Shown here: piece by piece, positions 1 through 59,387 of the stretch
Layout: every line of letters begins with the position of its first letter
Numbering within the stretch: the first letter of the stretch is position 1
From: Filomicrobium sp.
Lineage (GTDB): Bacteria > Pseudomonadota > Alphaproteobacteria > Rhizobiales > Hyphomicrobiaceae
DNA: 64,000 nucleotides
Reading direction: 5' to 3'
NCBI GenBank assembly: GCA_017792465.1
Contig: CP051234.1
Coordinates: 2,234,606-2,298,605, forward strand
The notes under the pieces: model-generated
The model's database searches: none
Seen by the model: the letters and a program-made list of their open reading frames with translations, nothing else
Told to the model about the DNA's origin: nothing
Made by a program: the position numbers and the translations under genes

Positions 1-1
1 C

Positions 2-3000
2 GGTCCCGGGATAGACAAAAGCGACAAGGACAACCTCGAGATCCCTGAATTGCCTTTGGCTCAGTCGAACGCCAATGTCGACAAAGCCGACGACATTGAA
101 GAGGCAAGCCCCATCCTTGAGCGGGTTCGCGAAGCCTCCCGCGTGTTTGCGTCGGCCCCGACGATCGACGAGTTGGCTTCCGCACTGGATCGCAAGGAAG
201 GTTGGCGGCTTTCGGGGTATGCCATTCGACTGCATGAACTGACAGGATTGCCGCGCCGGCAGCCGCTGGCGATCTACGGTTCGAATGGCGCGATCTGGGC
301 GCGGCTGGCGCATGCGCTCGACAGAATAGAAAATCCCGGCGCCGAAAAGACTTTGCGCAGATATACCAAAGAGGCCGCAGCCTCATTGAATGCCGAGCAG
401 GCCGAGCCGCTGCCGCAAATCTACGCTCTTTCAGATCGGATCGGAGTGTGGCTGACAGACCGTGCGCCGCAACCCAACGAAACAAAGACCGTTCTTTTCG
501 GAAGGATCGAAACGCAGCGCCAGGCAGCACTCAAACAAAGCGGGGCTGGTCCTCTCCCGCCCCTTGATCCGTTCCTGGTGGAGCGGGCGTTGGCGATTTC
601 GACTGATCCGAAAATCCGCAGGGTCTTTGCCGATGCTCATTGGTTCACGCGCGGCAAGCCTTCGCAAGCTGCTACGGCGCCGGATTGGGCTCCCTTTGCT
701 GCCGCGCTGATCCCGCTATCGCTGGCGCTCATCTGGCTCATCAACAGTCTCGCCCTGCGCAAAGCCTACCTGCGCAGACGGCCGCCGCAACGCCGCCCGG
801 AACATGTGCAGCTTGTTGCCGACGCCGCCAACCAGATCGGCGAGTTCGGCAGTAAGTTCAGGCGGATCTCCCAACAACTGGCAACCCGCACATCGACGCG
901 GACCGGCCGCATCGACGTTGCCGGCACAATCCGCGCCGCGATTGCGGACGGGACCGGGATGATCCGGCCGGTCTATGAAGAAGCGACGCGCGCGCCGGAA
1001 TATCTTGTTCTCATCGAGCGCAGGTCGGCGGGCGATCAGGAAGCGCGCCGACACCGGGAACTGGTGCGCCAGCTCGAAGGCTTACTTCATTTCAACGTTT
1101 TTTATTTCCGCACCGAGCCCTCGATCCTCGAACCTGACGGTGGCGGCAAGCCGATTGCAATCGAACGGCTGCGCTCAAGCCATGCCGGGCAGAGACTTCT
1201 GGTTATTGGGTCGGGCATCGGCTTTCTCGATCCGGTCGACTTCGAACCCCTGCCGGCCGCACAGGTCCTGACCCATTGGGACTACCGGGCTTTGCTGACG
1301 CCTGTTCCGCTGGCCGAGTGGGGGCGGGAAGAATTCGAACTTGCGCGGCAACTGAATATGCCGGTCGGGCGTGCGACCGTCGAAGGGCTGACAGGGCTTT
1401 CGGAGCTTCTGGGGCTTGAAGGCAATCTTTCCCGCGACAGCGTCGAACCGCACGGAGATGCACTGGCTCGGCCGCTGCCAGAAGTGTTCCGGTTGCGACC
1501 TCAGCGGCTGCTCTATGACACCCCGCCAACCGACTTGCCGGAAGAACAGGTATTGCAGGACCTGCGTAACTTCCTCGATCCGGCGAGCTTTGACTGGCTT
1601 TGTGCTCTGGCCGTCTATCCGGCGGTGCAGTGGGACCTGACGATTTATCTTGGCGTTGCACTGCCTGAAACGGCCGGCGGCGATCCGGCCCGGGCTCCGC
1701 TATATAACGAAGCTCGCATAGCGGCGCTGACCCAGCTGCCGTGGCTGCGCGAAGGCATGATGCCGAACTGGCTTCGCCGCGCCTTGATGCGAGAAATGCC
1801 GCCCAAGCGCAGCAAGGAAGTGCGCCGGGCTTTGGCCGCCGTGCTCGAACAAGCCCGCGAGCAGGATGGCGCGTTTTCCGACAGCGCGGTCAAGTTCGAT
1901 ATCTCGCGCGAGGTCGCTCAATCCGCGCTCGCGGAAACCTTCGATGACGAAGTGCTGCTCGACTTTCTCGCACGCGGCGACATCGAAGACCTGAAAGTCG
2001 ACCAGAGCAATCTCATCAAACGGCTGGTGCCGAAGGGCATTCTCGACCGCATCGGCTGGCCGGAATTGATCGCTGCCGGAGTTGCGGGCATCTACGCCGC
2101 GGCCGCCTATCTGTTGACGCCTCGAGCTGGCGCGCCGCTGGTGACCGGGGCTTGGCTGCCGCTCGTGTTCCTGGGTGTCGGAGCCGTTATCGCGCTGGGG
2201 CTGGCAAACCCTTATGAAGCCTACCGGCGCATTCGTCTCTGGCTGATGCGGTCGACGACGTTTGGGCTGGCCTTTGCCCTTGCGGTTCTGCTGTCTGCCC
2301 CTTTGCAAATCGTTCGGCTAACTTTGAGCGATGCGTTTGCCAGCCAGTTCAATGCTGCACTTGCCGCGGCGGTGCTGGGGCTTCTTGCTGCCCGGTCTAT
2401 CGTCAAGTGGCTGTGGCTGCCGACCTGGATGAGCGCCGGCAGCATCTGGAAACGAGGCGCGATATTCTGGGCCAAATGTCTCGCTCTGGCAGTTGTCGTT
2501 TTTGGCATCTGGCAACTCCTCGAACCGCCTCCGCAGCGCGCCGGCATCAATTCAGCTTCGGACTATTTCGCAGCGCTTGCGGCGACACTGTCACCGCTGT
2601 CGCCCGTCTATTCCCAGCTCTTGATCGTCGTTGCTGCTGGCTTCAGCCTCTTTGCCCTCGGCTTTGCGGCCGCGCGGTTCCTGCCGGAGCATCTACCCGA
2701 AGCCCCTTCGATGGTGTTGTCACGCGGCCCCGACTGGGCGGCTGGCGCGTTGAAGGTCGCGATCTGTCTATTGCCGATCCTGCCGGCGATCTACCTTTCG
2801 GTGGAACTGGCGTCGTCAAGCGTGATCCTGAACGGCGTGTCGCGCGAAATCACGGCGCGGGCGCAGCTCCCCGATGGGTCGGTGCTCGCACTCGGCGGCT
2901 CCGATGGGCAGGTCACGTTTATCCAATTCGAGGAGCGCGGCGGGTTTGAGCAGTCTTCCGTACGTTTTGCCGGCGGATCGATTGTCGATCTTGCGCTCCA

Positions 3001-5806
3001 CGAACTTGGGCCCGGGCGAACGAAGGTCGCGTTCGCTTTGCGCGACGGGATGGTGCGCGGCGGTGTTTTGAGTTCGCGGCCTGACGGGCTCGAATTCCAA
3101 AGTTCCTTTTCCAAACAGGTTGGGGGCGCCAGCAACGGTGCGCCGCTCAAAATTGCGTACAATGGCCAAGGTCATCTCGTCAGCGCGACGGAATCGGATG
3201 TTGGTGCCAGCCAGATTTCCGTTGAAGGGCGCGGCAGCGACATTACCGTCACGGATGGGCCTGTCACCGCCATGGCCTCAGCCGGTCCCGGTTTCGTCTA
3301 CGCCACCATGGACGGTCGCCTTTGGCATGTCAGCAATCCCGCCTACCAGGCCCAGCCCACTCCGACAGAGCCGCAAAGCGATTCCACCATCGTCGATTTT
3401 CGAAATTTCGGCCGTGCGCGAACACTCAAGATCATTCCGGACACAAAGCAGAGCGATCGCTATCGGCTCGTCGCGATTGGCGATGACGGCACGGTGATTA
3501 CCGGATATGTCGGCGATGGTTTCGAAGAACTCACACTCATGACCGACCACCGCGAGAAGCTGGCCCTGACAACCAAGCCGGCCATCTGGCGAGGCATTGA
3601 GAATAAAACTCCCGGCGCCGATGCCGAAGAGACGAGCTCCAAGAAGTTCGCGGCGCTGGTCTATGACGTCGACAATCAGCAACTGTTGTACAGCCAGAAC
3701 ATCGATGAGCTGCGCTACCCAGCCTCGCTTGTGAAGGTGATGACCCTCTTCATCGTTTTCGATAGGCTAGCCGATGACCGGCTTCGATTGGACGATCAGA
3801 TTTCCGTATCGCCAAAAGCGGCTGCCGTGCCGCCGGCAAAGGCTGGACTGCGGGCAGGCGAAACCTTGAGCGTCGAACAGGCTATCAGTCTAATAGCGAC
3901 GAAATCGGCCAACGACGTTGCCGTTGCGGTCGCAGAACACATTGCCGGTTCGGAAGAAGCTTTCGCCGATCTCATGACACGCGAGGCACAAGCTCTGGGA
4001 ATGGCAAAGTCGGTTTTCAAGAACGCTAGTGGGCTGCCAGACCGTGAGCAGGTTACGACCACGCGCGATCTCCTGACGTTGAGCCTGGCCATGCTCAAGC
4101 GCTTCCCGCAGTACTATAAATACTTCGGGCTTGAGACCTATGAATTCAGGGGCAAGACCTATAAAAATTTCAACGCTCTGCTGACATCATTCGAAGGCAC
4201 CGATGGCATCAAGACCGGTTACACGCGGGCGTCGGGGTTCAACATCATCGTGTCGGCGAACAGGGTCGGGGGCGCAACCAACGGGCGAGGGCGGCTGATC
4301 GCGATTGTGACCGGCGGTCGAACTTCGGCTGTCAGAAACTCGATCGTTCGGGCGTTGCTCGGCCGCTATTACGGCGACCCGCCGACTGCCGACAGCGAAA
4401 TCCTGATTGCCGAGGACGGCTCCCAACGACCGAAGGCTTTGAAAGAGATCGCCGCTGCCGCAGCCGATATCGGCAAGCGGGCTGCTTCGGTTGATGCACT
4501 CGTCGAGGAGCTGGATACCGAAGTGGCCGCCTTGGTCAAGGAGGACAGCAGTTCAACGAAGGCCGCACGCCTTTCACCAGAGCTTCAATTTGCGCAAGCG
4601 AAAGGAAAACTGCCGCGTCCGACATACGCCCGGCGCGTCTTGCCCTATGGCGCAGAGACCCAGTCTGGAGGTGTCTCCAAAGGCGAATTCTACCAAACCC
4701 GCGACAACGCACAGGTTACGTCTCCAGCCGATGGCTGGGTTGTCTATGCCGGAGAATTCCGCGCGTATGGCCAGATCCTGATCATCAATTGCGGTGACGG
4801 GTATCAAGTGCTGCTCGCCGGTTTCGAGAAGATCACCGCTCAGCCCGGTCAATTCGTCCTTTCAGCCGAACCGGTGGGAGAAATGGGCGGGCGTGACAGC
4901 GAAACCGAGCCGTTCCTCTATGTCGAGTTTCGCAAAGACGGCAAGCCGATCGATCCCGCACCCTGGTGGGAAAACGGAACCGACACGGCGGCGTCGGACA
5001 CGTCACCACCTGGATCTCCCCGAGGACCAGATGGAGCTGACGGATCGGCCATCGAGGCTGATCCCAACCCCGGTTTAGCGCCCAGCCTGGGCATTCCCAG
5101 AAAGCCGATCATCGTGATCGACCCTGGCCATGGTGGGGCCGACCTGGGCGCGCAAAAATTTGGTTTGCTCGAAAAAGACGTGGTGCTGCGGCTCGCATTG
5201 GAGCTGGGCCGGAAACTCGTCGAAGAAAATGGCTACGTCGTCAAACTTACGCGTTTGGGCGATCAACGGCTGACGCTGCAGCGCCGGCGGGAATTCGCCG
5301 AACGAAGCGGCGCTGACGTGTTCCTTTCGCTCCACGTGGATTCTGCTCGTTCCGACGCTACCGGTCCGATAATCTACACGCTGCAGCCTTCAATCCTCAC
5401 CGAGCTTTTCGGATCGGACAATTCCGAGCTTCGGCAGGAACTGCAAATCAGAAACCGCGCCTTGGGGCAATCGATCGCATCCGAACTCGTCGAACCGTTA
5501 CTTACCAAGGAAAATCCTCTGAGGCCCGGAAAGTTTGGTGTGCTGAGGACAACGAAGCTGGCCGCTGCACTCATCGAGGTCGGCTATGTCTCGAACAGGG
5601 CTGACGCTCAGGCGATGCTCTCGCAAGACTGGCGGGACCGTGTTGTCGGCGCGATCGCGACCAGCCTCGAACGGTACTTCAAGCGATACCCGGCCGAGCG
5701 AAGGCAAGGCGAACCGATAGATTCCGAGCAGCAGCCACCATTGCTCGATCCATCCAGTGTGCCGCTTCCGGCTGCGCTCATCGACGACCCCAACACCAAA
5801 AACTGA
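2..5806 (+). CDS. Giant multidomain envelope protein: vWA-like region, membrane helices, D,D-carboxypeptidase, degenerate LytM and Amidase_3 (5' partial)
   Basis: The frame is open from the window edge, so the true start lies upstream. Residues are counted from the TTG at 50. Visible in order: a soluble part with a membrane helix near 214-236; a region around 270-440 with alternating hydrophobic strands (EYLVLIERRS, LLVIGSG, RALLTPVP) resembling a vWA-like fold; a helical region to about 660; about seven membrane helices between 672 and 921; a beta-rich region to about 1180. Then comes a serine D,D-carboxypeptidase domain with S1226-LV-K1229, S1286-A-N and K1388-T-G, so all three motifs are intact. 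An M23/LytM-like domain (about 1545-1645) has no HxH and looks catalytically dead, like EnvC. The C-terminal Amidase_3 domain keeps zinc ligands H1694, E1708, H1762 and catalytic E1843. Domain calls are family knowledge. Inference: a membrane-anchored peptidoglycan hydrolase that carries its own activator-like domain. The role of the N-terminal half is unknown. Confidence 0.85.
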   Translation, partial: GPGIDKSDKDNLEIPELPLAQSNANVDKADDIEEASPILERVREASRVFASAPTIDELASALDRKEGWRLSGYAIRLHELTGLPRRQPLAIYGSNGAIWARLAHALDRIENPGAEKTLRRYTKEAAASLNAEQAEPLPQIYALSDRIGVWLTDRAPQPNETKTVLFGRIETQRQAALKQSGAGPLPPLDPFLVERALAISTDPKIRRVFADAHWFTRGKPSQAATAPDWAPFAAALIPLSLALIWLINSLALRKAYLRRRPPQRRPEHVQLVADAANQIGEFGSKFRRISQQLATRTSTRTGRIDVAGTIRAAIADGTGMIRPVYEEATRAPEYLVLIERRSAGDQEARRHRELVRQLEGLLHFNVFYFRTEPSILEPDGGGKPIAIERLRSSHAGQRLLVIGSGIGFLDPVDFEPLPAAQVLTHWDYRALLTPVPLAEWGREEFELARQLNMPVGRATVEGLTGLSELLGLEGNLSRDSVEPHGDALARPLPEVFRLRPQRLLYDTPPTDLPEEQVLQDLRNFLDPASFDWLCALAVYPAVQWDLTIYLGVALPETAGGDPARAPLYNEARIAALTQLPWLREGMMPNWLRRALMREMPPKRSKEVRRALAAVLEQAREQDGAFSDSAVKFDISREVAQSALAETFDDEVLLDFLARGDIEDLKVDQSNLIKRLVPKGILDRIGWPELIAAGVAGIYAAAAYLLTPRAGAPLVTGAWLPLVFLGVGAVIALGLANPYEAYRRIRLWLMRSTTFGLAFALAVLLSAPLQIVRLTLSDAFASQFNAALAAAVLGLLAARSIVKWLWLPTWMSAGSIWKRGAIFWAKCLALAVVVFGIWQLLEPPPQRAGINSASDYFAALAATLSPLSPVYSQLLIVVAAGFSLFALGFAAARFLPEHLPEAPSMVLSRGPDWAAGALKVAICLLPILPAIYLSVELASSSVILNGVSREITARAQLPDGSVLALGGSDGQVTFIQFEERGGFEQSSVRFAGGSIVDLALHELGPGRTKVAFALRDGMVRGGVLSSRPDGLEFQSSFSKQVGGASNGAPLKIAYNGQGHLVSATESDVGASQISVEGRGSDITVTDGPVTAMASAGPGFVYATMDGRLWHVSNPAYQAQPTPTEPQSDSTIVDFRNFGRARTLKIIPDTKQSDRYRLVAIGDDGTVITGYVGDGFEELTLMTDHREKLALTTKPAIWRGIENKTPGADAEETSSKKFAALVYDVDNQQLLYSQNIDELRYPASLVKVMTLFIVFDRLADDRLRLDDQISVSPKAAAVPPAKAGLRAGETLSVEQAISLIATKSANDVAVAVAEHIAGSEEAFADLMTREAQALGMAKSVFKNASGLPDREQVTTTRDLLTLSLAMLKRFPQYYKYFGLETYEFRGKTYKNFNALLTSFEGTDGIKTGYTRASGFNIIVSANRVGGATNGRGRLIAIVTGGRTSAVRNSIVRALLGRYYGDPPTADSEILIAEDGSQRPKALKEIAAAAADIGKRAASVDALVEELDTEVAALVKEDSSSTKAARLSPELQFAQAKGKLPRPTYARRVLPYGAETQSGGVSKGEFYQTRDNAQVTSPADGWVVYAGEFRAYGQILIINCGDGYQVLLAGFEKITAQPGQFVLSAEPVGEMGGRDSETEPFLYVEFRKDGKPIDPAPWWENGTDTAASDTSPPGSPRGPDGADGSAIEADPNPGLAPSLGIPRKPIIVIDPGHGGADLGAQKFGLLEKDVVLRLALELGRKLVEENGYVVKLTRLGDQRLTLQRRREFAERSGADVFLSLHVDSARSDATGPIIYTLQPSILTELFGSDNSELRQELQIRNRALGQSIASELVEPLLTKENPLRPGKFGVLRTTKLAAALIEVGYVSNRADAQAMLSQDWRDRVVGAIATSLERYFKRYPAERRQGEPIDSEQQPPLLDPSSVPLPAALIDDPNTKN

Positions 5807-6189
5807 TGAGGTCGCCGCACCCGGTGAGCCAGGCAAAGCGGTCCTTCGCCCCGGCATTTTAAGGGCGTTTCACTGTTGCCTTTGCACACCACGGTGCGAT
5901 GAAGGTTATATATTGCAAAGGACATTTCGTCAGTGCTCTTGCAATCAGCCACTCAGGTGACACCTGATAATCGTGTCTAGTGAGTCGCCTCGGGCCGATT
6001 TGTTCCCACGCGCCGCGAAAGGCCGAACTCACACGAACCGCCCGGCGGGCAGTGCCAGCCGCATGCGCCGCGCGGTCAAACTAACTGCAAGTTTTGCGTC
6101 CCGGGACAATCAAACGCGTGCAGGCCATTGGCAGACCGTGCGCGCGTGCCGGCCTAGCGCCGACAAACTGGATAGGATTGACCAGCTGG
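5807..6189. other. Intergenic region, no gene recognised
   Basis: The 383 bases between the giant envelope protein and the asparagine synthase contain no ORF with a convincing start and no strong hairpin with a T-run. A promoter for the downstream gene is expected here but I cannot point to one. Confidence 0.5.
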
Positions 6190-8190
6190 ATGTGTGGATT
6201 TGCGGGTGTTCTGGATCTGAAGGGCCTTGAAGAAATCGACCGACGGATGGTCGAACGCATGGCCGACGCCATCAAACATCGCGGTCCAGATGAAAACGGC
6301 TGGTTTGGTGAAGCCGGTATCTCGATCGCGCATCGGCGCCTCAGCATCATCGACGTCGAAGGCGGTCATCAGCCGATCTTCAATGAGGACTCCTCGGTTG
6401 TCGTAATTTTCAATGGCGAGTTGTTCGACTTTCCTGAGCAGCGGGCTCGCCTGATCGAGAAGGGGCACACGTTCCGCACCAAGGCCGACACCGAAATCAT
6501 CGTCCATCTCTACGAGGAATACGGCGAAGACCTTTTCCGGCACCTCAACGGTCAATTCGCGTTTGCGCTGTTCGATCGAAGACATCGCAAACTCATTCTC
6601 GGTCGAGACCGTGTCGGGATCTGTCCGCTGCACTGGTCGCGGCAGGGCGATCATCTTTTCTTTGGCTCGGAGATCAAATCGCTGTTGGCGTCGGGTGCCG
6701 TTCGCCCGGAAACCGATCCGAGAGGGCTCGATCACATCTTCACGTTTTTTGCGATCGGGCGTCGCCGCACGATGTTCAAGGGCGTGCATTCGCTGCTACC
6801 GGGTCGATACCTGCGCATTCAGCTCGATCAATCGGGCCGGCCGGCCGAGATCACCGAGCGGCAGTATTGGGATCTCGATTTTCCGGACATGGGAGCCGAG
6901 GACGACCCGGCCGACGAAACGGCTTTGATGGACGAGTTCGAAGCGACGTTCCGCGAGGCGGTCAAGGTTCGACTTCGTGCCGACGTGCCTGTGGTTGGCT
7001 ATCTGTCCGGCGGTATCGATTCCGCAGCCGTCATGGCGCAGGCCACCGAAGTCACAGGGCGCAGCCTGCCGAGCTTTACGATCAAGGTTCCGCACAAGAG
7101 CTTCGATGAAACCGATAACGCGATGCTGGCTGCACGCCATATCGGAACCAAACCGATTGTGCTTGAAGCCGGACCGCAGCTCATCTCGCAGATGTACCCG
7201 AGGCTTGTGTCGGCTGCCGACAGTCCCGTCGTTGACACGGCATGCGCTGCGCTTCACGCACTGGCCGGACGGGTGCATGAGTCGGGCTACAAGGTGGCGC
7301 TGACGGGTGAAGGGTCCGACGAGGCGTTGGCGGGTTACGTCTGGTTCAAGATCGACAAGATCATGCGCGGCCTTGGCATCGGTTCGTCGCAACCCGGGGC
7401 GACGGTCCACCGTGCCATTCGGAAAATGCTGGTGCCGTCGGTGTCTTTTTCCGAGATGGCGCATGCCGATCGCCAATTGTCCGGCATTCAGGCGCAGAGT
7501 CCCGTTTGGCATTTGATGTCGGGCACGCGGCATCGCTTTTTCAGCCGTGATTTTCTCGACAGTCTGGACGGGCATACGGCTTACGACGATCTGGAACTCG
7601 ATACCGAGCGCATGGCGCGCTGGCATCCGCTCAACCAGTCGCTTTATGTCGGCTACAAGGTGTTCCTTGCCGGGCTCCTGCTCAACCACAAGGGCGACCG
7701 TGTGGCGATGGCCAACAGTGTCGAGACCCGCTACCCGTTTCTCGATGAAAAACTGATCGCCTTGATGGCGCGTCTGCATCCGCGCTGGAAGCTGCGTGGT
7801 ATGCGCATGGACAAGTATCTGCTGCGTAAGGTTGCCGCGCGGTCGTTGCCGCATGAGATAGCGCTCAGGCCGAAGGCGATGTTCCGGGCTCCCTTCGCCG
7901 ATAGCTTCGTTGGCGAGGATGCGTCTTATGTCGGCCAGTTGCTGAGCGAAGAATCGTTGCGCAAGACGGGCTACTTCGATGCAAAAGCGGTTCGCGACTT
8001 CTACGAGCACGCCAAGCTCGGGCGCACCCGGAGCACACAGATGTTTTCGGGCATGGGGCTTGCCGGCGTGATCTCAACGCAGTTGTGGCATCATCAGAAT
8101 TTCGGTGGCGGCCTGTGCGATCTTCCCTACCGCAGCTTCGACGTCGATGCGCATCCGCCAGCACAGCGCCCCGAGGAACTGATCTCCTGA
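6190..8190 (+). CDS. asnB: Asparagine synthase (glutamine-hydrolysing)
   Basis: This is a class II glutamine amidotransferase fused to an ATP-pyrophosphatase synthetase domain. It transfers ammonia from glutamine to an AMP-activated carboxylate, normally aspartate, in the cytoplasm. The start is fixed by the family rule that the catalytic cysteine follows Met1: the protein begins MCGFAGV, so the in-frame upstream extension is ignored. R31-GPDE and the FNGELFDF segment near residue 74 are glutaminase landmarks. S273-GGIDS is the PP-loop that binds ATP. At 666 residues it is slightly long for AsnB, with a short C-terminal tail. Paralogues of this family also modify peptides or surface polysaccharides, and no cell-wall synthesis operon lies beside it to decide between these roles. 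The only strong neighbour is the upstream peptidoglycan hydrolase on the same strand, 383 bases away. Confidence 0.85.
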   Translation: MCGFAGVLDLKGLEEIDRRMVERMADAIKHRGPDENGWFGEAGISIAHRRLSIIDVEGGHQPIFNEDSSVVVIFNGELFDFPEQRARLIEKGHTFRTKADTEIIVHLYEEYGEDLFRHLNGQFAFALFDRRHRKLILGRDRVGICPLHWSRQGDHLFFGSEIKSLLASGAVRPETDPRGLDHIFTFFAIGRRRTMFKGVHSLLPGRYLRIQLDQSGRPAEITERQYWDLDFPDMGAEDDPADETALMDEFEATFREAVKVRLRADVPVVGYLSGGIDSAAVMAQATEVTGRSLPSFTIKVPHKSFDETDNAMLAARHIGTKPIVLEAGPQLISQMYPRLVSAADSPVVDTACAALHALAGRVHESGYKVALTGEGSDEALAGYVWFKIDKIMRGLGIGSSQPGATVHRAIRKMLVPSVSFSEMAHADRQLSGIQAQSPVWHLMSGTRHRFFSRDFLDSLDGHTAYDDLELDTERMARWHPLNQSLYVGYKVFLAGLLLNHKGDRVAMANSVETRYPFLDEKLIALMARLHPRWKLRGMRMDKYLLRKVAARSLPHEIALRPKAMFRAPFADSFVGEDASYVGQLLSEESLRKTGYFDAKAVRDFYEHAKLGRTRSTQMFSGMGLAGVISTQLWHHQNFGGGLCDLPYRSFDVDAHPPAQRPEELIS

Positions 8191-57972: not shown

Positions 57973-58311
57973 ATGGACCGCCCCAAGACGAAACACGTCA
58001 CCGCGTTCGTCCCTCCAATGGATGGGCGCAGAATTGGATCCGGCCTGCGCCAGTTCGCGCGTCTGTTCTCAGGCTGCGCACTTCTCTTGGCCGCCGAACC
58101 ACTCGTTGCTGCGGAGGGCGGCGTCTTCTTGTTGGCAGAAGACGTCCCGGCGGCACCGCCGAGCCAGAAGCCCGCTCCCGACAATGGCAAGTCAGCGCGC
58201 CAGCCCGCGCCGCGAAACGGGGAAAGCTCTCGCGAACAGGCGCCACCGAAGCATCAGCCACAGCCGCGCGGATGTCCCTACCGTGAGGGACCGATCAATT
58301 TGCTGGTTTAG
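57973..58311 (+). CDS. Proline-rich exported protein of unknown function
   Basis: A 112-residue protein. A hydrophobic segment (LFSGCALLLAAEPLVAA, about residues 34-50) looks like an export signal or anchor, followed by a Pro/Gln/Lys-rich disordered tail. GGAG precedes the ATG at 57973. Its stop overlaps the stop of the convergent carboxypeptidase gene. Low-complexity composition leaves some doubt. Confidence 0.5.
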   Translation: MDRPKTKHVTAFVPPMDGRRIGSGLRQFARLFSGCALLLAAEPLVAAEGGVFLLAEDVPAAPPSQKPAPDNGKSARQPAPRNGESSREQAPPKHQPQPRGCPYREGPINLLV

Positions 58312-59387
58312 TTGTCGAAGACGTAGCTGACGGAATTCTTATTCTTCGTCGCTGAGGCCGCCTGCGGTTTTTTCGATGGCTTAAGTGCCGGTTTCTTTTG
58401 TGCAGCGGGCTTTGGCTTTTTCCGGCCGTACGTCTTGGAATACTTGCGCTTGATCCGGTTCTTGGCGGCGCGCAACCGGTTTGCCGACTTGCGATTGCCG
58501 CACGCCCACGACGTCACCGTATGCCGGATGCTACGGGCTTTGCGCGCGTCGGGCGCCAAAGGCATGTTGTCGACGGTATCGGTATTAAACAGTTGCTTCC
58601 AGCCGTATTGGCGGAACCCATGCTCCAACAAGCTTGCAGCGCGCAAGTTGCGGTCAGCGCTCGATGGCTCACCCAGAACCACCGTCATCAATTGGGTACC
58701 ATCGCGGGTGGCACTGGCGACAACGTTAAAACCGGAATCGCAGATGAACCCGGTTTTCATACCATCGGCACCCTCGAAGGATTTCAGCAATCCGTTGTGG
58801 CTACCAAGCATGCGCTTGCCGAGCCGGAAACTTGGCATCGCCCAATAATGCGCGTACTCGGGAAAGTCCTTGACGATGGCGCGCGCAAGCTTGGCCAAAT
58901 CGCGTGCGGTGGTGATCTGGCGCTTATCTGGCAGACCGTTGGGATTGACGAATTGCGTGCGCGTCATGCCCAAACGTTTGGCCGTCGCATTCATGCGGTT
59001 GATGAAGCCGTCATAGGTCGGGCCGAGCTTTTGCGCGATCATGACGGCAACATCATTTGCCGACTTGACGATCAACGCCTTCAGCGCCGTGTCCAACGTC
59101 AGTTTGGCGCCAATCGGCAGGCCAACCTTGCTGGGCGGCTCTTTTTGCGCGAGTTCGGTGCACGGAATTTCGGTCTTGAGCGTCGCGCGGCCGGCCTTCA
59201 GATCCTGGAAGGCGAGGTAGGCGGTCATTATTTTGGTCAGGGACGCAGGATGCCACTGATCGTCAATGTTCTCGGAGTAAAGAACCTTGCCGGTCTCAGC
59301 TTCGAACAATAGCGTCGGGCCAGCATCTGCGCGGCCTGGAATCAGAACCGCAAGCAGTAATGCTGCTACCGAAATAAGTGTTCGCAT
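58308..59387 (-). CDS. D-alanyl-D-alanine carboxypeptidase (PBP5/DacF type)
   Basis: A 359-residue periplasmic enzyme that trims the terminal D-Ala of peptidoglycan stem peptides. Signal peptide MRTLISVAALLLAVLIPGRADA; S49-LT-K52, S109-A-N and K211-T-G form the active site. The C-terminal part is a very basic Lys/Pro-rich tail (KKPKPAAQKKPALKPSKKP) where the classical PBP5 amphipathic anchor is expected. Its catalytic domain is related to that inside the giant protein at 2-5806, so the window encodes two such domains. Confidence 0.9.
   Translation of the reverse strand: MRTLISVAALLLAVLIPGRADAGPTLLFEAETGKVLYSENIDDQWHPASLTKIMTAYLAFQDLKAGRATLKTEIPCTELAQKEPPSKVGLPIGAKLTLDTALKALIVKSANDVAVMIAQKLGPTYDGFINRMNATAKRLGMTRTQFVNPNGLPDKRQITTARDLAKLARAIVKDFPEYAHYWAMPSFRLGKRMLGSHNGLLKSFEGADGMKTGFICDSGFNVVASATRDGTQLMTVVLGEPSSADRNLRAASLLEHGFRQYGWKQLFNTDTVDNMPLAPDARKARSIRHTVTSWACGNRKSANRLRAAKNRIKRKYSKTYGRKKPKPAAQKKPALKPSKKPQAASATKNKNSVSYVFDN

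What the first reader, a model, noticed from the sequence alone, without database searches (positions are those of the whole stretch)
3640..5806. D,D-carboxypeptidase, EnvC-like dead LytM domain and zinc amidase fused in one membrane protein
Seen: intact SxxK, SxN and KTG motifs (1226, 1286, 1388), an M23-like domain without HxH, and an Amidase_3 domain with H1694, E1708, H1762 and E1843. Known: in most bacteria AmiC-type amidases are switched on by a separate EnvC/NlpD protein with a dead LytM domain, while carboxypeptidases are separate enzymes. Here the regulator and two enzymes that act on the same stem peptide are covalently joined. This suggests a self-contained, gated peptidoglycan hydrolase, possibly for division or programmed lysis.
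Basis: partly seen in the sequence, partly recalled or inferred. Interest (0 to 1): 0.82.

Follow-up and report, generated by a model that had tools for sequence, protein, structure and literature searches.

The report
Immune-like switch fused to wall-cutting enzymes
One huge bacterial membrane protein, encoded beside immune-type genes, ends in three parts that resemble the cell-wall and cell-division machinery (two intact-looking enzymes and a dead activator domain), so it may be a built-in device for breaking the cell's own wall when a threat is sensed; this has not been tested at the bench.

Summary
The three domains end one open 2,083-aa frame that begins 446 bases before the window in a single-contig genome. 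Upstream lie a TIR-iSTAND gene and an AAA_5-class (MoxR-like) ATPase gene; the giant's first two thirds are a membrane module with a probable divergent vWA core. This is the layout of iSTAND-type MoxR-vWA ternary conflict systems (PMC7159879), whose vWA proteins carry varying tails. The nearest sibling found (core 49-50%) keeps the gene order but has a WD40 tail; 0 of 80 sibling loci show this hydrolase tail. The tail is predicted to be periplasmic. Its LytM domain groups with EnvC of its own family and keeps 35 of 37 invariant EnvC residues; its amidase is about 30 residues short where AmiC enzymes hold autoinhibitory and activator-docking helices. Best reading: an ATPase-gated, inside-out wall-damaging effector. 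Main rival: a periplasmic sensor. A new variant of a known kind; function untested.

The parts
1..5806 (+). last 1,934 codons of a 2,083-aa protein; the first possible start codon lies 446 bases before the window (genome 2,234,160)
   Evidence: single open frame, ATG at L009:11554, stop ending at L009:17805; it overlaps the end of the ATPase gene (L009:10542-11588)
701..757 (+). second membrane span (aa 383-401), 7 Lys/Arg in the 15 residues after it; the first span (aa 128-146) lies just before the window
   Evidence: hydropathy scan
737..2059 (+). core (aa 395-835), predicted cytoplasmic, probably a divergent vWA domain plus a helical extension
   Evidence: 88 relatives among 125 pattern matches; model pLDDT 83.2; first PDB match a NorQD chain, E 4.9e-3; none at E 0.001; profile hits VWA_CoxE proteins
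2066..2812 (+). seven further membrane spans (aa 838-1086); nine in all, predicting a periplasmic C-terminus
   Evidence: hydropathy scan
2813..3619 (+). module (aa 1087-1355) resembling the propeller region of sibling L035 (about 32% identity); no Pfam family
3650..4318 (+). D,D-carboxypeptidase domain (Peptidase_S11) with SxxK, SxN and KTG
4421..4519 (+). presumed helical linker before LytM; weak resemblance to the end of the EnvC coiled coil (12 of 500 shuffles score as high)
4535..4990 (+). EnvC-like dead LytM domain (Pfam M23 at 4676-4957)
5111..5671 (+). AmiC-type zinc amidase catalytic domain (Amidase_3) with a shortened regulatory segment

Best explanation
The gene is the vWA component of an iSTAND-type MoxR-vWA ternary conflict system. 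A cytoplasmic TIR-iSTAND protein senses or relays a threat, the MoxR-like ATPase remodels the cytoplasmic core of the giant membrane protein, and the change is passed through the membrane spans to its periplasmic tail. The tail is a peptidoglycan-attack module assembled from cell-wall parts: a D,D-carboxypeptidase, the LytM domain of EnvC and an AmiC-type amidase. When switched on it damages the cell's own wall and kills or arrests the infected cell. The fused amidase, missing most of its regulatory segment, would need no LytM docking; the well-kept LytM domain could recruit and switch on the host's own AmiC enzymes in trans. Shown by computation: the domains, the intact motifs, the gene set, the tail differences among siblings, the EnvC kinship and the shortened amidase. 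Supported but not decisive: vWA fold, MoxR subfamily, periplasmic side (hydropathy only). Inferred: direction of signalling, trans-activation, lethality.
For: Domains and motifs. TIR-iSTAND: TIR_2 58.2 bits (cut-off 28) and iSTAND 33.6 (cut-off 24); ATPase AAA_5 32.9 (cut-off 22), Walker motifs by eye. A homologue of that ATPase lies just upstream in 58 of 64 sibling loci with at least 3.5 kb upstream; third-gene proteins match Pfam iSTAND in 32 of 57 scanned, this one included. Core: first of 808 fold matches is a NorQD chain, and the profile picks up VWA_CoxE proteins. Tails: L035 has the same order of genes with a WD40 tail; G094 Peripla_BP_6; of 10 sibling tails scanned one by one, L048 caspase, L036 TIR, L046 IcmF_C; FGE-sulfatase in 22 of 79 tails. 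Nine spans at hydropathy cut-offs 1.4 to 1.6, eleven at 1.2, an odd number each time. LytM groups with EnvC of family f1 (support 99/96) and keeps 35 of 37 residues invariant in 30 EnvC. Amidase: 80 residues between the second His motif and the catalytic Glu motif, against 107-115 in the 13 of 30 AmiC rows measured. AmiA variants without the regulatory domain lower viability (PMC10268282, passages).
Against: No experiment. Only one genome was found with this tail (0 of 80 sibling loci), so there is no comparative proof of selection on the fusion. Siblings carry a ligand-binding tail, and a 2024 paper proposes that vWA tails are sensors (PMC10907252, passages). The eLife paper says effector domains in these systems are often inactive. 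Long branches (LytM 0.98; amidase 5.26), so drift cannot be excluded. The amidase segment is about 21 residues longer than in 5emi, so one helix may remain and LytM could still act in cis. vWA: VWA_CoxE is sub-threshold for this protein, no fold match reaches E 0.001, TM-scores are low, the next matches are LarB, and the listing does not say which subunit the NorQD chain is; the core profile finds no PDB sequence. ATPase: the MoxR models AAA_3 (E 0.013) and bpMoxR (E 0.22) are sub-threshold and its best PDB matches are midasins. iSTAND by plain tblastn is found in only 16 of 64 siblings. Sibling span counts are mixed and depend on the cut-off (L074 2, L035 4 or 5, L036 8 to 10). The tail model failed (pLDDT 36.8).
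Confidence: 0.48

Rival explanations
1. The tail is a periplasmic sensor. It binds peptidoglycan, its fragments or wall damage (for instance by phage lysins or wall antibiotics) and signals inward through the core and the ATPase to the TIR domain, which is the killing enzyme.
For: A sibling carries a periplasmic ligand-binding tail and 22 of 79 carry FGE-sulfatase tails. A 2024 PNAS paper proposes for related ternary systems that the vWA-bearing protein senses and the effector is elsewhere (PMC10907252, passages). A TIR domain is present.
Against: A sensor needs neither two different intact hydrolase active sites nor an activator domain with 35 of 37 invariant residues kept; a shortened amidase autoinhibition segment is not expected in a sensor.
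Confidence: 0.27
2. A decoy or dominant-negative module: the domains compete with or sequester the host's EnvC, AmiC and carboxypeptidase, blocking division or shielding them from a phage protein, without wall cutting.
For: Decoys made from inactive copies of host enzymes are a theme proposed for these systems (PMC7159879, section 35 part 1 and passages); LytM is close to the host's own EnvC (61%, 57.7% over a longer match).
Against: Both enzyme domains keep every catalytic motif checked.
Confidence: 0.13
3. A division hydrolase: carboxypeptidase, EnvC-like regulator and amidase fused for daughter-cell separation.
For: Amidases and EnvC act in daughter-cell separation, where a cytoplasmic ATPase drives LytM exposure (PMC12505981, passages).
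Against: A separate EnvC homologue and two AmiC homologues are in the same genome; the N-terminal part has a match in only 2 of 99 genomes, the own one and G094; the gene sits near TIR genes in a stretch that congeners lack at that place.
Confidence: 0.08
4. An assembly or sequencing artefact joined separate genes.
For: The architecture is unique in the searches made.
Against: A 6,252-base frame without a stop inside, in a single-contig genome; third-position GC is even across the domains (0.65 to 0.71); sibling L035 matches up to near the same boundary.
Confidence: 0.02

Closest known systems
iSTAND-type MoxR-vWA ternary conflict systems (PMC7159879, section 20 read)
   Same: TIR-iSTAND third component, MoxR-like ATPase, tail-bearing membrane protein with a probable vWA core and a variable C-terminal tail
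   Different: the paper lists PEGA, OmpA, PASTA and Sel1 as peptidoglycan-associating tails; the words amidase, carboxypeptidase and M23 occur 0 times in its main text. This tail has intact hydrolase motifs
FtsEX-EnvC-AmiA/B (PMC7668044, PMC10268282, PMC12505981, passages)
   Same: could work like it in outline: a cytoplasmic ATPase, a membrane relay, a periplasmic EnvC LytM domain, a zinc amidase
   Different: MoxR-like/vWA in place of FtsE/FtsX; the periplasmic parts on one chain plus a carboxypeptidase; the amidase segment with the blocking and docking helices is shortened
Sibling locus L035 (DMER01000111.1, alphaproteobacterium UBA12226)
   Same: order: divergent TIR-like gene (by eye), TIR-iSTAND, MoxR-like ATPase, membrane protein with the same core and following module
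   Different: WD40 tail instead of the hydrolases
BlaR1/MecR1-type receptors (recalled, not tested)
   Same: a penicillin-binding-protein-like domain outside and a signalling part inside
   Different: not compared here; named only as a precedent for the sensor rival

Membership tests
iSTAND MoxR-vWA ternary conflict system | third component with an inactive STAND domain | tested here: met
   Pfam PF19995 33.6 bits, cut-off 24, with TIR_2 at the N-terminus
iSTAND MoxR-vWA ternary conflict system | MoxR-type AAA+ ATPase next to the vWA gene | tested here: inconclusive
   An AAA+ ATPase overlaps the giant's start: AAA_5 32.9 bits over cut-off 22, AAA 31.3 over 21.2. The MoxR subfamily is not shown: AAA_3 E 0.013 and bpMoxR E 0.22 are sub-threshold; best PDB matches are midasins. 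A homologue lies upstream in 58 of 64 siblings
iSTAND MoxR-vWA ternary conflict system | vWA domain in the tail-bearing protein | tested here: inconclusive
   VWA_CoxE sub-threshold (14.5-15.3 bits, cut-off 26.4); first fold match a NorQD chain, E 4.9e-3, prob 0.99, TM-scores 0.22/0.36, subunit not stated; the family profile hits about 395-aa proteins at E down to about 1e-9, of which two were scanned and both are VWA_CoxE above cut-off. Favourable, not decisive
iSTAND MoxR-vWA ternary conflict system | C-terminal tail varies between members | tested here: met
iSTAND MoxR-vWA ternary conflict system | acts against phages or other invaders | not testable with these tools
   proposed in PMC7159879; no bench test here
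EnvC | degenerate LytM domain without zinc ligands, groove kept | tested here: met
   no histidine in the 94-residue stretch; 35 of 37 invariant residues kept; of six groove positions recalled from the E. coli literature (their names come from no call; 0 occurrences of five of them in PMC7668044) four are identical and two are V to F and V to I, read by eye from the alignment
EnvC | N-terminal coiled coil binding FtsX and a restraining arm | tested here: inconclusive
   the EnvC local alignment covers LytM and about 40 residues before it; the rest of EnvC is not matched, and the presumed linker helix resembles the end of its coiled coil only weakly. It is an EnvC-like domain, not a whole EnvC
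AmiC-type amidase | H-E-H plus catalytic Glu | tested here: met
AmiC-type amidase | regulatory insert with blocking and interaction helices | tested here: not met
   80 against 107-115 residues (13 of 30 rows measured; the longer segment is also seen in the other printed rows); a partial helix may remain
Peptidase S11 D,D-carboxypeptidase | SxxK, SxN, KTG | tested here: met

The most novel reading that the evidence does not exclude
A conflict system has captured a hydrolysis arm of the divisome and rewired it: a MoxR-like ATPase and a vWA membrane protein take the place of FtsEX, the EnvC LytM domain switches on the host's own AmiC enzymes in trans, and a fused amidase freed from autoinhibition together with a carboxypeptidase completes a bacterial wall-collapse death effector that fires from inside the cell outward.
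Probability: 0.23. Interest if true: 0.88.

Novelty: new variant of a known kind. Interest (0 to 1): 0.62.

Why it matters
Two published proposals disagree on whether the variable tail of vWA proteins in ternary conflict systems is the weapon (PMC7159879) or the sensor (PMC10907252). Here the tail carries enzymatic motifs with well-known assays, so point mutants can decide between the two for this system. If it is the weapon, it would be a periplasmic, wall-cutting effector for this family and an independent example of ATPase-driven control of an EnvC-type domain across the membrane. It would also be a natural test of what an AmiC-type amidase does without its full regulatory segment.

Tried and rejected
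Tried without result. Structure of the LytM-amidase part from a single sequence: pLDDT 36.8, not used, so docking in cis is open. Three viral-contig scans: no relatives. PADLOC on the four system genes: no family for the TIR-FGE gene or the giant; for the TIR-iSTAND (best PDC-S66, E 5.5e-9) and the ATPase (best TRIP13, E 1.5e-6) only part-domain matches. Phage and plasmid collections: of 180 and 311 records with a match, 0 have one place covering 80% of the 725-aa tail; with the 1,934-aa query 0 of 301 plasmid records. Attachment repeat of the tRNA-Arg end: no match of a 25-base end with up to 3 mismatches in the window, longest shared word 13 bases in the 75,999-base stretch. Integrase: none of the 6 Phage_integrase matches in the genome lies in the strain-specific stretch. 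Amidase tree: giant on a 5.26 branch, placement not used. Restraining-arm homology: 12 of 500 shuffles reach it, treated as weak. The module after the spans has no Pfam family. PDB search with the core profile: nothing; with a VWA_CoxE protein: nothing useful.

Rejected: frameshift or chimera; pure division enzyme; the beta-propeller ternary class (bpMoxR E 0.22; section 22 of PMC7159879 read; the third gene here is TIR-iSTAND).

Limits. The 84,980-species scan used one peptide pattern, so siblings without it were missed, and 80 of 88 relatives were kept. In 11 of the 80 loci the vWA frame runs off the contig end. One search lists only 25 of 119 families, so the absence of hydrolase tails rests on the tblastn at E 1e-3 with this genome's domains as queries. 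The EnvC tree used the best 29 loci of 297 genomes plus the own EnvC, not a random sample. The AmiC count covers 13 of 30 rows. Third genes were picked by script in 56 of 64 loci with an ATPase match. Topology is a plain hydropathy scan. Papers: seven search listings showed no paper describing this architecture; the library holds open-licence papers only.
Full report
The observation. Pfam finds Peptidase_S11, Peptidase_M23 and Amidase_3 in this order above their cut-offs. The M23 stretch has no histidine and resembles EnvC-type activators in the NCBIfam and PDB sequence searches. The window begins inside the gene: in the 4,470,904-base single contig the frame can start at 2,234,160 and then codes for 2,083 residues.

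What stands before it. Reading toward the giant, the upstream genes are a divergent TIR plus FGE-sulfatase gene (L009:6766-8931, minus), a TIR-iSTAND gene (L009:9084-10490), an AAA_5-class ATPase (L009:10542-11588) and then the giant, whose start overlaps the ATPase end. I call the ATPase MoxR-like from its class and its place; the specific MoxR models are sub-threshold and its best PDB sequence matches are midasins. The giant's own first two thirds hold a membrane span, about 236 residues, a second span, a core of about 440 residues, seven more spans and a further module. The span count is nine at hydropathy cut-offs 1.4, 1.5 and 1.6 and eleven at 1.2, odd each time, which with an inner N-terminus puts the tail outside. 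For siblings the counts are mixed and depend on the cut-off. This is a hydropathy argument only.

The core. Pfam gives only a sub-threshold VWA_CoxE match. An alignment of 52 relatives (A4) gave a model with mean pLDDT 83.2. The first of 808 Foldseek matches is a chain of the NorQD complex, prob 0.99, E 4.9e-3, with low TM-scores; the following ones are LarB; none reaches E 0.001. NorQ/NorD is a MoxR-type/vWA pair (recalled), but the listing does not say which subunit the chain is. The same profile picks up proteins of about 395 residues in other genomes of the class: 79 of 385 genomes match including the own one, and in the rows listed only the own one matches over the full length. Two of these proteins were scanned and both are VWA_CoxE above the cut-off. 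I take the core as a divergent vWA domain, favourable but not decisive.

Relatives. The N-terminal part has a match in 2 of 99 genomes, the own one and G094, and in 8 of 397 genomes of the order, the own one included and one of them (G013) only weakly over the first helices. One pattern scan of the 84,980-species collection gave 88 relatives, 80 kept. Of 64 loci with at least 3.5 kb upstream, 58 have a homologue of the ATPase just before the vWA gene, 16 an iSTAND match and 4 a TIR match by plain tblastn. With Pfam profiles, of 57 third-gene proteins scanned, this one included, 32 match iSTAND, 11 Trypsin_2 and 10 TIR_2. FGE-sulfatase is found in 22 of 79 tails and WD40 in 12; the eLife 2020 paper reports the FGS domain in about 22% of iSTAND systems (section 20). 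The closest sibling, L035, has the core at 49-50% identity, the same order of genes, and shares the module after the spans (about 32%), but ends in WD40 repeats. G094 ends in a periplasmic-binding domain. None of the 80 loci has a tblastn match at 1e-3 to the three hydrolase domains; in 11 the frame runs off the contig. So the hydrolases look like a swapped tail on a conserved platform.

The tail. The LytM domain is 61% identical to the same genome's EnvC over the matched part (57.7% over the longer match). In a tree of 31 sequences it lies with the EnvC of the own family (99/96) and with those of the own genus (97/94), on a long branch of 0.98. It keeps 48 of 56 residues invariant in 12 EnvC of the family and 35 of 37 invariant in all 30. 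The amidase has 80 residues between the second histidine motif and the catalytic glutamate motif; in the 13 of 30 AmiC rows where both motifs were found the number is 107-115. In E. coli AmiA the regulatory domain (residues 151-194) carries a blocking helix on the zinc and an interaction helix that docks into the EnvC groove, and variants without it lower viability (PMC10268282, passages). Against 5emi, which has 4 residues between the two matched pieces, the giant has 25, so a single helix may be left. Hence docking of the fused LytM on the fused amidase is uncertain, while the well-kept LytM suggests that it still binds something; the host's two AmiC homologues are natural candidates. This trans-activation is inference.

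Genomic setting. Four congeners were compared at the tRNA-Arg(CCG) next to polA. In G005 the tRNA is followed almost at once by sequence that here lies from window position about 43,360 on. In G007 and G003 shared sequence resumes after about 6 and 4 kb of their own, at window about 43,430 and 48,110. In G008 the 16 kb beyond the tRNA match nothing here. So the system lies in a stretch of roughly 51 kb that G005, most clearly, lacks at that place. No integrase match, no attachment repeat and no base-composition step was seen, so its mobility is open.

Mechanism. By analogy with FtsEX-EnvC, where a cytoplasmic ATPase frees the LytM groove across the membrane (PMC12505981 and PMC7668044, passages), ATPase action on the core could expose or position the periplasmic tail. 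TIR activity would be either the trigger or a second weapon. The rival, argued for related systems in PMC10907252 (passages), runs the signal the other way. The intact motifs and the shortened amidase lean toward the weapon; the ligand-binding tail of a sibling leans toward the sensor. I give 0.48 and 0.27.

Novelty. In seven paper searches no paper describing hydrolase tails in these systems was seen in the listings, and the words amidase, carboxypeptidase and M23 are absent from the main text of PMC7159879. The system class is known; the tail is a new variant.

Noticed in passing
L009:4468-4544 to window about 43,360: About 51 kb beside tRNA-Arg(CCG) are missing at that place in congener G005; three other congeners differ there too. 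No integrase match or attachment repeat was found.
   Followed up: partly
L009:6766-8931 (minus), upstream of the window: Divergent gene with TIR and FGE-sulfatase domains, perhaps an accessory of the same system; L035 has a divergent TIR-like gene (by eye) in the same place.
   Followed up: partly
L016:6098-10471 (G094): Sibling giant protein ending in WD40 repeats and a Peripla_BP_6 domain.
   Followed up: partly
L046:10835-12559: Sibling vWA tail holds IcmF_C and IcmF_helical domains, known from type VI secretion proteins.
   Followed up: no
L031:6963-15644 (G135): A 2,893-aa sibling whose tail, by eye, holds a periplasmic-binding-like part, caspase-like parts and many WD40 repeats.
   Followed up: no
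window 58308-59387 (minus): A D,D-carboxypeptidase-like paralogue lies in the same window, 39% identical to the tail's S11 domain.
   Followed up: no
window 6094-8190: Asparagine-synthase-like gene (by eye) directly after the giant; the best match in the 8 other genomes of the genus is only 45% identical.
   Followed up: no
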